Positions 31,401-35,588 of a stretch of 64,000 nt of DNA are shown piece after piece. The notes below the pieces were generated by a model. That model was not told where the DNA came from and did no database searches. It saw nothing but the letters and a program-made list of their open reading frames with translations. Source of the DNA: Rhodohalobacter sp. 614A (lineage in GTDB: Bacteria; Bacteroidota; Rhodothermia; Balneolales; Balneolaceae); the NCBI RefSeq assembly GCF_021462415.1, contig NZ_JAKEDS010000002.1:558001-622000 (forward strand). The letters are read 5' to 3'. The position numbers and the translations under genes were made by a program. Each line of letters opens with the position of its first letter. The stretch's first letter is position 1.

Positions 31401-31419
31401 ACCTAAAACAATTTTAGGT
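31401..31419. repeat. perfect 8-bp hairpin in the nrdJ upstream region
   Basis: ACCTAAAA (31401-31408) and TTTTAGGT (31412-31419) pair fully around a 3-base loop. No T-run follows on either strand, so it is not a terminator. It sits on the far side of the AT-rich tract from the DnaA boxes. Confidence 0.55.
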
Positions 31420-31484
31420 CTTGTGGGTAGTTGGGAATTCAACATAAGACAGTACGATTAATTCTGTGGCGATTGATTGGTTTT

Positions 31485-31625
31485 ATAGATGTAATAATGC
31501 TCTTTTTATTATATTTGTTGATGGTTTAATTTTATAAAAAAAAAGACTGTAAAGTATTTTGTTATTAAAATAAAATCATTTATAAAAAACATATAAATAA
31601 TTAATTTTAAAATGTAAATATTAAG
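31485..31625. other. AT-rich tract, candidate DNA unwinding element
   Basis: About 140 bases made almost wholly of A and T, with runs such as TTTTATAAAAAAAAAG and ATAAATAATTAATTTTAAAA. It borders the first DnaA box pair at 31649. Such tracts melt easily; at origins they lie next to the DnaA boxes. The composition is seen; the unwinding role is inferred. Confidence 0.45.
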
Positions 31626-31648
31626 GCTTTTTAAGATTGATTGTGATT

Positions 31649-31676
31649 TGTGGATAACTTTTTCACTTGTGAATAA
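31649..31676 (-). promoter_or_regulatory. pair of perfect DnaA boxes
   Basis: TGTGGATAA at 31649-31657 and TGTGAATAA at 31668-31676 are both exact matches to the reverse complement of the DnaA box consensus TTATNCACA. They point the same way and start 19 bases apart, close to two helical turns. A near match on the other strand, TTATCCCCA, lies at 31716-31724. Confidence 0.65.
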
Positions 31677-31842
31677 CTATACAAACCTTTCTTTGATGCT
31701 TGTTAGGGCTTATAATTATCCCCATAAGTCATATTTATATTTTTATAAATGATAATTTTCGAAAAATAATATAAGATTAATCGGTTTTCGATGAGGCCCT
31801 TCAACGTGTTTTTATGTCCTCAAATCCAGACACTTTTCTTAA

Positions 31843-31871
31843 TGTGGATAACTTGATTGAATTGTGGAAAA
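31843..31871 (-). promoter_or_regulatory. second DnaA box pair (one perfect, one with a mismatch)
   Basis: TGTGGATAA at 31843-31851 is exact and is followed by ACTT, as in the first pair. TGTGGAAAA at 31863-31871 has one mismatch. The two starts are 20 bases apart, repeating the spacing of the first pair about 194 bases away. Confidence 0.55.
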
Positions 31872-31903
31872 GTATTTGATTTTTTTCTTGCTGTCTCTGC
31901 TTC

Positions 31904-31920
31904 TCACAAATATATTGTGA
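31904..31920. promoter_or_regulatory. NrdR-like dyad upstream of nrdJ
   Basis: TCACAA (31904-31909) and TTGTGA (31915-31920) flank ATATA. This resembles the NrdR box (CAC, AT-rich centre, GTG), but the centre is 9 bases between CAC and GTG rather than 8, and no clear second box is found about 31 bases away. NrdR boxes normally lie upstream of ribonucleotide reductase genes, as here. Assignment is tentative. Confidence 0.4.
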
Positions 31921-32000
31921 AGTACAATTTCTAGCCAGGTCGCCAAATCATCAACGGCTAATTACACGATAATACCAGATACAAAGAGGAGATTATATTT

Positions 32001-35000
32001 ATGAAATTTAAGCGATTTTATACCAAAGAGGAATGGAGTTCACCGTACGAGGAGATTAAGTTTGAGAAAAGAAAATCAGAGATTAAAAATCCCGACGGTT
32101 CACTCATTTTTCAGATGGATAATGTAGTTGTGCCATCCAGTTGGTCACAGGTCGCTACCGATATCATTGCTCAAAAATATTTTAGAAAGGCCGGAGTTCC
32201 TGCCAAACTGAAAAAAATAAAAGAGAAAGGTGTCCCTGCCTGGCTTCAGCGATCGGAAGCAGATGAGAAAGCTCTCGAAAAAGTTGAAGAGGATGAAAGG
32301 TACAGCCATGAAATTGATAGCAAACAAGTGTTTCACCGTCTTGCAGGGTGCTGGACATATTGGGGATGGAAACACGATTATTTTGATTCCGAAGAGGATG
32401 CCAAATCTTTTTACGACGAACTTTCCTACATGCTCGCCAATCAAATGGCAGCACCGAATAGTCCGCAGTGGTTTAATACCGGATTGCATTGGGCGTATGG
32501 AATTAACGGTCCTGCTCAAGGCCATTACTATGTAGATGGTAAAACCGGCGAACTGAAAAAATCGGAAGATGCGTATTCACACCCTCAGCCGCATGCGTGC
32601 TTCATCCAAAGTATTGATGACGATCTTGTAAATGAAGGCGGTATTATGGATCTCTGGGTTCGTGAAGCCCGGCTTTTTAAATATGGCTCCGGAACAGGGA
32701 GTAACTTTTCGAAAATTCGTGGAGAAAATGAGCCTCTCAGTGGTGGCGGAAAATCATCCGGTTTGATGAGTTTCCTGAAAATAGGAGACCGTGCTGCCGG
32801 AGCAATCAAATCGGGTGGAACAACCCGGCGTGCAGCCAAAATGGTAACCCTTGATTTGGATCATCCAGATATTGAAGAATATATCAACTGGAAAGTCCGG
32901 GAAGAGCAGAAGGTAGCTGCAATTGTGGCTGGTTCAAAAGTTACGGAAAAGCACCTCAAAAAAATTATGCAGCTTTGTAATGAACCGGTAGAGATTGATG
33001 GAAAAAGTTTAAACGGTGCAGTAAGTCGCGATCCGCTGAAAAATGAAGATCTTGGAATAGCGATCAAAAAAGCAAAACGGGATCACGTTCCTTTGAATTA
33101 TATTGAACGCGTTATTCAACTTGCTGCCCAGGGTTTTAAAGATATTGAATTTGATACCTATGACACGGACTGGAATTCCGAAGCCTACATGACTGTAAGC
33201 GGACAGAATTCAAATAATTCCGTTCGTGTGCCAAACAGCTTTATGCAGGCCGTTGTGGATAACAGCGAATGGAATCTGTATGGCCGTGTTGAAAAGAAAA
33301 GAGCGGCAAAAGAAGGTCGTGATCCAGAACCGATGGAAACAATGCGGGCCCGTGATTTATGGGATCAAATCAGTTATGCGGCCTGGTCTTGTGCCGATCC
33401 CGGTACGCAATACCACGATACCATTAACGAATGGCATACATGCCCCGAAGACGGACCGATCAACGCAAGTAATCCATGTTCGGAGTATATGTTCCTGGAC
33501 AATACCGCGTGTAATCTCGCTTCTTTGAACCTGATGAAATATTTCAAAGATGAGGATTGCAGTACGTTTGATGTAGAGTCTCTTCGTCATGCATCCCGGC
33601 TTTGGACCACTGTTTTGGAAATTGCTGTATTGATGGCACAGTTTCCATCCAAAGAAATTGCTGAGCTTTCTTATGTATTCAGAACACTCGGTCTCGGCTT
33701 TGCCAATATCGGTGCAGCTCTGATGGTACAGGGTGTTCCCTATGACAGTGCTGAAGGCTGTGCTATTGCCGGTTCACTGACATCTATCATGCATATGAAG
33801 GCGTATGCTACAAGTGCTGAATTGGCAAATGAATTGGGTACGTTCGAAGGATATGAGCGTAATAAAGAGCATATGCTGCGGGTTCTTCGAAATCATAGAC
33901 GGGCCGCTTATAATGCAGAGGAGAACGAATATGAAGGTCTCACAATCAAACCTGTGGGAATCAGTGAGGATCACTGTCCAAAATATCTGTTGAAAGCTGC
34001 CCGCAAAGATTCTGATGAAGCCGTTGAATTGGGCGAGAAGTACGGATACAGAAATGCACAGGTAACCGTAATTGCCCCGACAGGAACTATTGGTTTGGTG
34101 ATGGACTGTGATACTACAGGTATAGAACCGGATTTTGCACTTGTGAAATTCAAAAAACTTGCCGGTGGCGGATACTTCAAAATTATCAACCAGAGTGTAC
34201 CGCTGGCTCTTAAAAATCTTGGATATGATGAAAAAGAGATTGATGAGATTGTTAAGTATGCGAAAGGTCATGCATCATTGGAAGGTTGTCCACATGTAAA
34301 TCCGGAAACGCTGAAAGAGAAAGGGTTTACGGATGAAAAATTGGAAGCTATTGAAAAAGCATTGCCCGGTAGTTTTGACATCAAATTTGCATTCAATCAC
34401 TGGACACTTGGTGAAGATTTCTGCAAAGAAGAGTTGGATTTAACGGAACAGCAGTTGTCCGATCATAACTTCGACATGCTTCGATATCTTGGATTCTCCA
34501 AAGATCAAATCCAGGAAGCTAACGATTATGTGTGTGGTACAATGACAATAGAAGGTGCTCCGCATCTGAAGGAAAAACATTACCCGGTATTCGATTGTGC
34601 GAATAAATGTGGGCGAATCGGCCAGCGGTTTATTTCAGCCGAAGGACACATCAATATGATGGCGGCTGCACAACCGTTTATTTCTGGTGCAATTTCCAAA
34701 ACCATTAATCTGCCGAATGAAGCAACTGTAGATGATTTCAAGGATGCATATATGCAATCCTGGCAAAAAATGTTAAAAGCCAATGCACTCTATCGAGATG
34801 GTTCCAAACTCAGCCAGCCACTCAACTCCATGAGTGATGTTCTTGATGAACTTGAAGATGAGGATGAAGAAACCGTTGCGGCACAAGACAAAGTGATTCA
34901 AACAGCCGAAAAAATTATTCATAAATATGTGGCCCGGCGTCAACGATTGCCATTCCGAAGAAGTGGGTATACCCAGAAAGTGAAGATTGGCGGTCAAAGT

Positions 35001-35588
35001 GTGTATCTGCGAACCGGTGAGTATGACAATGGTCAGCTGGGTGAAATCTTCATTGACATGCATCGCGAAGGTGCTGCATTCCGAAGTTTAACCAACTGCT
35101 TTGCTATTGCTATTTCCCTCGGTCTGCAGCATGGCGTGCCACTTGAAGAATTTGTGGATGCATTTGTATTCACCAAATTTGAACCGAGTGGAATGGTTGC
35201 GGGAAGCCCACACGTGAAAATGACGACATCCGTGATCGATTACATCTTCAGAGAACTTGCCGTTACTTACCTGGGAAGGGAAGACCTTGCTCACGTAGCG
35301 CCAGAAGATATTCTGAAGAGAAAATTACGACCATCGGAGGAGCAAGAACTTGCAGATGAAGTTGCAAAACAATCTCATCCAAAGCCTCAAACCTCAACGG
35401 TTAAGGAAAGTGCAAATGTTACCGAACGGCAGTATCAATCTGATAATGATGCTGACTCTGATTATGATCGTGCCAAACAACTTGGTTATACAGGCGACTC
35501 CTGCCCCGAATGCGGGAGCATGACTATGATTCGCAATGGAACATGTTTGAAGTGCATGACCTGTGGATCTACAACAGGCTGCTCCTAA
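32001..35588 (+). CDS. nrdJ: vitamin B12-dependent class II ribonucleotide reductase
   Basis: 1195 residues, the large NrdJ type. It reduces ribonucleotides to deoxyribonucleotides with adenosylcobalamin and needs no oxygen. Visible stretches are [20 protein letters not shown] (about 230-249), the [21 protein letters not shown] active-site region (about 491-511, with the radical cysteine) and [21 protein letters not shown] (about 692-712). The last 30 residues form a cysteine-rich tail ([16 protein letters not shown]) for thioredoxin-type reduction. Between about 860 and 1110 is the insert-rich C-terminal part. No NrdAB is seen nearby. A strong terminator follows. Confidence 0.95.

What the first reader, a model, noticed from the sequence alone, without database searches (positions are those of the whole stretch)
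31401..31920. Origin-like module: hairpin, AT-rich tract and spaced DnaA boxes upstream of a ribonucleotide reductase
Within a 996-base gene-free region lie, in order, a perfect 8-bp hairpin (31401-31419), a ~140-base AT-rich tract, three exact DnaA boxes in one orientation (31649, 31668, 31843) and two near matches (31716, 31863). The boxes come in two pairs, each with a 19-20-base start-to-start spacing. The exact 9-mer is rare by chance (8 fixed positions), so three in 200 bases is striking. This is the layout of an unwinding element beside DnaA boxes, so it could be the chromosomal origin. The alternative is DnaA control of nrdJ, which is known for nrdAB in E. coli.
Basis: partly seen in the sequence, partly recalled or inferred. 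Interest (0 to 1): 0.62.

Follow-up and report, generated by a model that had tools for sequence, protein, structure and literature searches.

The report
DnaA-controlled ribonucleotide reductase promoter
The DnaA-box cluster is very probably not where this bacterium starts copying its chromosome; it is a conserved control region that most likely lets the replication initiator DnaA set how much of the DNA-building-block enzyme NrdJ is made.

Summary
The boxes are real: three TTATNCACA in the 996-bp gap upstream of nrdJ (class II, B12-dependent ribonucleotide reductase) occur in 0 of 1000 shuffles. The host is a Balneolaceae bacterium. The origin reading fails: sampled GC skew turns near C1:901 kb, beside a 417-bp gap dense in DnaA boxes, and again near C2:953 kb; nrdJ lies at C2:590 kb within one arm. 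The array is conserved: 95 TTATCCACA upstream of nrdJ in 49 genomes, own included, against 0.28 expected. In 26 of 27 Balneolaceae loci two boxes 20 bp apart sit at a fixed 48 bp from a TATnnT -10. NrdR, the usual RNR repressor, is over cut-off in 0 of 58 genomes. Best explanation: DnaA regulates the nrdJ promoter, as known for E. coli nrdAB, but on a class II enzyme, with another box spacing, without NrdR. The hairpin is chance-level; the AT-rich tract recurs in only about half of relatives. In two relatives copies of the promoter module precede Pycsar-type or Thoeris-TIR-type defence genes. DnaA binding and the sign of regulation are inferred, not shown.

The parts
31649..31657 (-). DnaA box A, exact TTATCCACA (reads TGTGGATAA on +)
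   Evidence: 21 of 27 Balneolaceae nrdJ loci have an exact box 161-197 bp upstream of D (one search counts 20; L129, where the script locked on another pair, is read)
31668..31676 (-). DnaA box B, TTATTCACA; 19 bp from A here; in 13 of 27 loci A and B are both exact and exactly 20 bp apart
31716..31724 (+). DnaA box C, TTATCCCCA (one mismatch here); a TTATNCACA box in 13 of 27 loci, 66-68 bp from the A position
31843..31851 (-). DnaA box D, exact TTATCCACA; exact in 26 of 27 Balneolaceae loci
31863..31871 (-). DnaA box E, TTTTCCACA (one mismatch), 20 bp start-to-start from D; its non-consensus form is itself conserved
31888..31893 (+). predicted -35 hexamer TTGCTG (3 of 6 to TTGACA), 25 bp from box E start
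   Evidence: conservation; not reported by the consensus scan, so it rests on conservation
31911..31916 (+). predicted -10 hexamer TATATT, 17-bp spacer, 48 bp from box E start
32001..35588 (+). nrdJ, vitamin B12-dependent class II ribonucleotide reductase, 1195 aa
   Evidence: NF005736 2029.8 bits, cut-off 1737; TIGR02504 598.7, cut-off 399.95
31401..31419 (.).
31501..31640 (.). AT-rich tract (87% AT); the matching 140 bp is 61-90% AT in 22 loci (own included), at least 80% in 11 of 22; sequence not conserved

Best explanation
This is the regulatory region of nrdJ. DnaA binds the paired boxes D and E (20 bp apart, about two helical turns), centred about 76 and 56 bp upstream of the predicted start of transcription. 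From there it acts on RNA polymerase at a promoter with a weak -35 and a good -10. The upstream array A-B-C adds further DnaA and probably tunes the response, by cooperative filling, looping or repression at high DnaA-ATP. The effect is to tie dNTP synthesis to the level or nucleotide state of the replication initiator, as DnaA does for nrdAB in E. coli. Shown here: the boxes, their conservation, the fixed geometry to a conserved promoter, the absence of a recognisable NrdR, and the location away from the skew minimum. Inferred: DnaA binding, the sign of regulation (net activation at moderate DnaA is my guess, about 60%), and the role of A-B-C.
For: (1) 95 TTATCCACA in up to 450 bp upstream of nrdJ in 49 Balneolota genomes, own included (21.8 kb), against 0.28 per shuffled set; in 29 of those loci the coding part has 2 in 103.8 kb and the downstream flank 2 in 37.5 kb. 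42 of 49 have at least one, 29 of 49 at least two. (2) Outgroups: of 10 Ignavibacteria-type loci none has a TTATCCACA; of 66 others 9 have one and none has two. (3) Geometry: 26 of 27 Balneolaceae loci have D, E 20 bp on, and TATnnT 48 bp after E (one search shows 25; L129; same 26). 34 of 92 family genomes match a stricter pattern that let the D-E and E/-35 gaps vary; all 34 have the same 74-nt length, once per genome. In a phylum draw 42 of 45 family genomes match D-E-TTG against 2 of 349 others. (4) In G067 and G070 the TTG is shifted by 1 bp, yet E to -10 stays 48 bp. (5) Of 74 TTATCCACA in this genome, only four places hold two or more within 300 bp: the origin candidate, the dnaA upstream region, nrdJ, and one inside a permease gene. 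(6) The genome's DnaA has the DNA-binding domain (PF08299, 102 bits). (7) NrdR (TIGR00244) is absent here and over cut-off in 0 of 58 genomes. (8) Precedent: E. coli nrdAB, and nrdDG by ChIP-seq (passages of PMC8203912, and PMC11317965).
Against: No binding or expression data. The -35 is 3 of 6 to consensus and the consensus scan, which found 5 sites against 5.4 expected, does not list this promoter. The D-E gap (11 bp) is not the 2-3 bp gap that E. coli DnaA prefers. Related genomes are not independent, and many outgroups may differ in base composition. 58 of 92 family genomes do not match the strict pattern. Outside the family the layout changes and 6 of 21 loci have no exact box. G029 (L105) lacks D. 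One outgroup locus (L053) has one TTATCCACA and one TTATTCACA. The A-to-D distance is not helically phased across genus medians, so looping is unproven.
Confidence: 0.85

Rival explanations
1. The region is the chromosomal origin: DnaA opens the AT-rich tract beside the boxes.
For: DnaA-box cluster, AT-rich tract and large gene-free gap. In one relative, G043, nrdJ is only about 33 kb from dnaA if its single contig is circular.
Against: Skew does not change sign here; the skew minimum is on another contig beside a denser box cluster that recurs in relatives. The AT tract reaches 80% or more in only 11 of 22 loci. nrdJ is not tied to dnaA: about 735 kb apart on one contig in G034.
Confidence: 0.02
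2. The array is mainly a DnaA titration or reactivation site (datA- or DARS-like) that happens to lie upstream of nrdJ; any effect on nrdJ is secondary.
For: Five boxes in about 220 bp; in E. coli DARS1 and DARS2 also lie upstream of genes (passage of PMC11317965). A-B-C-D-E is more than a simple promoter needs.
Against: D and E keep a fixed distance to the -10, which a titration site does not need.
Confidence: 0.1
3. Another DNA-binding protein, specific to nrdJ, reads TGTGGATAA-N11-TGTGGAAAA, and the match to DnaA boxes is coincidental.
For: Box E departs from TTATCCACA in a conserved way (TTTTCCACA), and the 11-bp gap is unlike the E. coli double box.
Against: The same 9-mer clusters upstream of dnaA (30 of 30 loci examined have two or more TTATNCACA) and at the origin candidate (28 of 30 have at least one). 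Families outside Balneolaceae use the same 9-mer in other layouts.
Confidence: 0.04
4. nrdJ is controlled here by NrdR or by a cobalamin riboswitch, and the boxes are incidental.
For: NrdR boxes are described for almost all RNR genes (passage of PMC4009431); part of 31906-31921 resembles one half of an NrdR box.
Against: No NrdR match in this genome. No Rfam match at gathering score in the window and only three weak sub-threshold matches to eukaryotic families in the gap. The NrdR-like half site is the -10 and its other half is not conserved.
Confidence: 0.02

Closest known systems
Escherichia coli nrdAB promoter (DnaA-regulated class Ia RNR)
   Same: Clustered DnaA boxes upstream of an RNR gene: TTATCCACA at -162 and TTATGCACT at -150 of nrdA. 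DnaA activates or represses by level and nucleotide state (passage of PMC8203912). An upstream AT-rich sequence is named in the title of a 1994 nrd paper in that review's reference list (paper not read).
   Different: Here the enzyme is class II; pairs are 20 bp apart rather than 12 bp start-to-start; a second group of boxes lies about 160-200 bp further up; E. coli also uses NrdR, which was not found here.
E. coli nrdDG (class III RNR) DnaA site
   Same: RNR operon with a DnaA site by ChIP-seq (passage of PMC11317965).
   Different: Another class; E. coli double boxes have a 2-3 bp gap.
Proposed DnaA control of RNR genes in Bacillus subtilis and Caulobacter
   Same: DnaA proposed to regulate RNR genes (passage of PMC8203912).
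   Different: Other phyla; I did not compare their box layouts.
Origin candidate and dnaA upstream region of the same genome
   Same: Same 9-mer clusters, recurring in relatives.
   Different: The D-E-promoter pattern occurs once in this genome, at nrdJ.

Membership tests
Chromosomal origin (oriC) | Lies at the GC-skew minimum | tested here: not met
   Sampled skew: minimum about C1:901 kb, maximum about C2:953 kb, nrdJ at C2:590 kb; contigs C4-C10 not sampled
Chromosomal origin (oriC) | DnaA-box cluster beside an AT-rich unwinding element | tested here: inconclusive
   Boxes and AT-rich tract present; tract at least 80% AT in only 11 of 22 loci
Chromosomal origin (oriC) | Replication starts there (marker frequency) | not testable with these tools
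   No read data
DnaA-regulated RNR promoter (E. coli nrdAB type) | DnaA boxes at a fixed position upstream of an RNR promoter | tested here: met
   the promoter itself is predicted from conservation
DnaA-regulated RNR promoter (E. coli nrdAB type) | Boxes conserved in relatives beyond chance | tested here: met
   95 against 0.28 expected; 42 of 49 loci with at least one
DnaA-regulated RNR promoter (E. coli nrdAB type) | E. coli-type double box with a 2-3 bp gap | tested here: not met
   Gap is 11 bp in Balneolaceae; 11-bp start-to-start pairs occur in L117 and L127
DnaA-regulated RNR promoter (E. coli nrdAB type) | DnaA binds and changes transcription | not testable with these tools
   Needs footprinting and reporter assays
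NrdR-regulated RNR promoter | NrdR gene present | tested here: not met
   0 of 58 genomes over cut-off; 1 of 58 (G029) has a weak partial match; 9 of 14 control genomes positive
Cobalamin riboswitch-controlled RNR | RF00174 match upstream | tested here: not met
   No gathering-score match in the window; a riboswitch sits upstream of metE-nrdB-nrdA elsewhere in the genome
DnaA titration/reactivation site (datA, DARS) | Alters DnaA nucleotide state or availability | not testable with these tools
   Needs genetics and biochemistry

The most novel reading that the evidence does not exclude
In Balneolaceae DnaA takes the place of NrdR as the main transcriptional controller of the housekeeping class II RNR, through a rigid two-turn double box. 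In genus g7 this replication-linked promoter has been copied in front of anti-phage operons (Pycsar-like PycTM-PycC; MazG/ThsB-like TIR/SLATT), so that defence expression follows the DnaA or replication state of the cell.
Probability: 0.3. Interest if true: 0.72.

Novelty: new variant of a known kind. Interest (0 to 1): 0.46.

Why it matters
How bacteria without NrdR match dNTP supply to replication is a gap that this makes testable. A whole family shows a nearly invariant DnaA double box locked to the nrdJ promoter, which offers initiator control of a class II RNR and a second geometry for DnaA as a transcription factor. It also corrects the reading of this site as an origin and points to a likely true origin about 360 kb from dnaA.

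Tried and rejected
Origin reading: rejected by skew sampling. In relative G043 the sampled skew was too noisy to place an origin, and there nrdJ lies about 33 kb from dnaA if the contig is circular. NrdR-box reading of 31906-31921: rejected. Riboswitch: rejected. Looping by helical phasing of A to D: over 51 distances (furthest exact box; 33 genomes and 18 more; G020, where only B matched, left out) Rayleigh R is 0.42 at 10.5 bp with p about 0.00015, but over 12 genus medians it is 0.25, p about 0.48, and periods of 11 and 12 bp score higher; treated as unproven. Hairpin and AT tract as an unwinding element: hairpin at chance level, tract in about half of relatives. Copies of the module in viral contigs: 0 found. 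Literature searches: DnaA box, ribonucleotide reductase, nrdJ: 1 paper; DnaA, nrdAB: 10; Balneol, DnaA: 7; NrdR, DnaA, Bacteroidetes: 0; DnaA, class II RNR: 10; DnaA boxes, nrd, regulon: 7; Balneolota origin: 0; DnaA, nrdJ, promoter: 6; Pycsar, promoter, RNR: 1. No title or abstract start that I saw describes DnaA control of nrdJ. I read passages of four papers (PMC8203912, PMC11317965, PMC12176259, PMC4009431); the rest I saw only in listings. One search read loci without orienting them; redone. In one search the script locked on the upstream pair of L129, so that row is taken.

Full report
What was checked. The window lies at G000:C2:558001-622000 of a 4.69-Mb, 10-contig genome. Its nrdJ is 79-85% identical to four named Balneola or Balneolaceae records (L003-L006), so the host is a Balneolaceae bacterium (Balneolota). 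Three TTATNCACA in the 996-bp gap occur in 0 of 1000 dinucleotide shuffles; the 8-bp hairpin is expected 0.39 times by chance.

Not the origin. On C1, raw skew is negative in 9 of 12 sampled 20-kb stretches that start at or before 820 kb, and the strand-corrected third-position skew is negative in all 7 of those where it could be computed; it is positive in 8 of 8 stretches from 940 kb on. On C2, raw skew is positive in all 13 stretches that start at or before 800 kb (window included), slightly negative at 900 kb, and negative in 3 of 3 from 1,000 kb on. On C3, 3 of 3 are negative. C4-C10 were not sampled. Contiguous 140-kb and 120-kb stretches across the two changes put the minimum at C1:901,171 and the maximum at C2:952,685. 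nrdJ at C2:590 kb lies in the positive arm. Contig joins are unknown, but each sign change is internal to one contig. The gap at C1:894,807-895,223, beside dtd (D-Tyr-tRNA deacylase) and 6 kb from the skew minimum, has 11 DnaA boxes with at most two mismatches in 417 bp and 6 with at most one; background in window 1-31000 is 4.16 and 0.23 per kb; the 996-bp nrdJ gap has 7 and 5. Boxes recur there in relatives: of 30 dtd loci examined (52 of 58 genomes have dtd), 28 have at least one TTATNCACA within 450 bp, with boxes at about -362 in 17, -109 in 12 and -22 in 19. dnaA is at C1:532,885, about 360 kb from that candidate, and 30 of 30 dnaA loci examined have two or more TTATNCACA upstream.

What it is. 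nrdJ was found in 53 of 58 genomes, own included. I examined upstream DNA for 49: three others (G009, G011, G016) have no 5' end in the match, and one (G049) I did not fetch. The last 450 bp or what is available hold 95 TTATCCACA against 0.28 per shuffled set. In 29 of those loci the coding part holds 2 in 103.8 kb and the downstream flank 2 in 37.5 kb. At least one exact box is present in 42 of 49 and at least two in 29 of 49. One locus (L127, from G004) is labelled same genus but is 76% identical and has another family's layout, so it may be mis-binned. It counted as family; without it the figures are 41 and 28 of 48, and within the family 26 and 21 of 27. Among 76 outgroup loci, 0 of 10 Ignavibacteria-type (one of them only labelled 'bacterium') has an exact box, 9 of 66 others have one, and none has two.

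Geometry. Alignment of 20 sequences (19 genomes; L006 and L087 are the same contig) shows two blocks. Upstream, A and B are exact and exactly 20 bp apart in 13 of 27 family loci (19 bp here, with B as TTATTCACA), an exact A or B is present in 21 of 27, and C in 13 of 27. Downstream come D, E 20 bp on, a T-rich stretch, TTGCTG, 17 bp and TATATT. D, E and a TATnnT at 48 bp from E hold in 26 of 27; L105 lacks D. In 92 family genomes a pattern that let the D-E and E/-35 gaps vary matched 34, and every match has the same 74-nt length. In 394 genomes drawn from the phylum a looser D-E-TTG pattern matched 42 of 45 Balneolaceae and 2 of 349 others. Of the three Balneolaceae misses, G021 has no nrdJ match and G011 only the 3' part. 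For 15 of the 42 I confirmed by position that a match lies just upstream of nrdJ; for the rest I infer it. In G067 and G070 (genus g7) TTG is one base further from E with a 16-bp spacer, so E to -10 stays 48 bp. This fits a protein bound at D-E that must face RNA polymerase. The A-to-D distance runs from 160 to 198 bp over 51 genomes, bimodal in the own genus (182-184 or 194-197), without convincing helical phasing across genera.

Mechanism. Box E is centred about 56 bp and D about 76 bp before the predicted start (near 31923), positions like those of class I activators (recalled). The -35 is poor, 3 of 6, and one search does not report this promoter, which fits a promoter needing an activator but also means that the promoter rests on conservation. 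NrdR is over cut-off in 0 of 58 genomes, with one weak partial match in G029, while 9 of 14 control genomes are positive. A 2014 review passage states that all known eubacteria have nrdR except Rickettsia, Helicobacter and Desulfovibrio (PMC4009431); Balneolota would be a further exception. I therefore propose that DnaA is a main controller of nrdJ. E. coli nrdAB shows that DnaA can activate at low level and repress when DnaA-ATP is high (passage of PMC8203912). Direct binding and the sign of regulation are not shown here.

Known versus new. DnaA control of RNR is known for E. coli nrdAB, supported by ChIP-seq for nrdDG, and proposed in B. subtilis and Caulobacter (passages). E. coli DnaA prefers box pairs with a 2-3 bp gap; E. 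coli nrdA has 12 bp start-to-start. Here the pair is 20 bp start-to-start and locked to the promoter, and the enzyme is class II. My searches listed no paper whose title or abstract start describes this. I call it a new variant of a known kind.

Side finding. In two g7 genomes the D-E-promoter module occurs in three extra copies without nrdJ: G067 C16 and C32, and G070 C1:169,071. In each the 100 bases after the -10 region fold strongly as RNA (-30.8, -39.5 and -35.3 kcal/mol, against -7.8 and -8.5 for the nrdJ leaders of the same genomes; no shuffles were run). About 0.5 kb downstream of the G067 C16 copy begin PycTM and PycC homologues (Pycsar), and further on a phage-type integrase; about 0.5 kb downstream of the G070 copy begin MazG, a ThsB-like TIR protein, an Nmad2-domain protein, a second ThsB-like protein and a SLATT protein. 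The third copy has no evident defence gene, but only one nearby protein was tested there. The copies match nrdJ promoters over 51-269 bp. Whether they drive the defence genes, through the hairpins, is untested.

Noticed in passing
L265 (G067:C16), L266 (G067:C32), L267 (G070:C1:168900-174000): Three orphan copies of the nrdJ D-E-promoter module followed by strongly folding RNA; two of three lie about 0.5 kb upstream of defence-type genes (PycTM-PycC; MazG/ThsB-like TIR/Nmad2/SLATT). A phage-type integrase lies near the first.
   Followed up: partly
G000:C2:205598-211873 (L185:5598-11873): Cobalamin riboswitch (RF00174, 126 bits), metE, nrdB, nrdA: a B12-independent backup RNR downstream of a B12 riboswitch, with no exact TTATCCACA in that 20-kb stretch (nrdB scores below its family cut-offs).
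   Followed up: partly
G000:C1:894807-895223 (L199:2307-2723): Likely true oriC beside dtd, at the sampled GC-skew minimum and about 360 kb from dnaA; boxes recur in relatives.
   Followed up: partly
L116, L117, L123, L125, L127, L131: In another Balneolota family layout nrdJ upstreams carry boxes in the opposite orientation; L117 and L127 have an 11-bp start-to-start pair like the E. coli double box.
   Followed up: no
L127 (G004:C230): nrdJ of a 'same genus' genome is only 76% identical and has another family's box layout; possibly a mis-binned contig.
   Followed up: no
G000:C4:146909-146976 (L197:2409-2476): Two TTATCCACA 59 bp apart inside a MacB/FtsX-type permease gene; significance unknown.
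   Followed up: no
window 33254-33262: A further exact TTATCCACA inside the nrdJ coding sequence.
   Followed up: no
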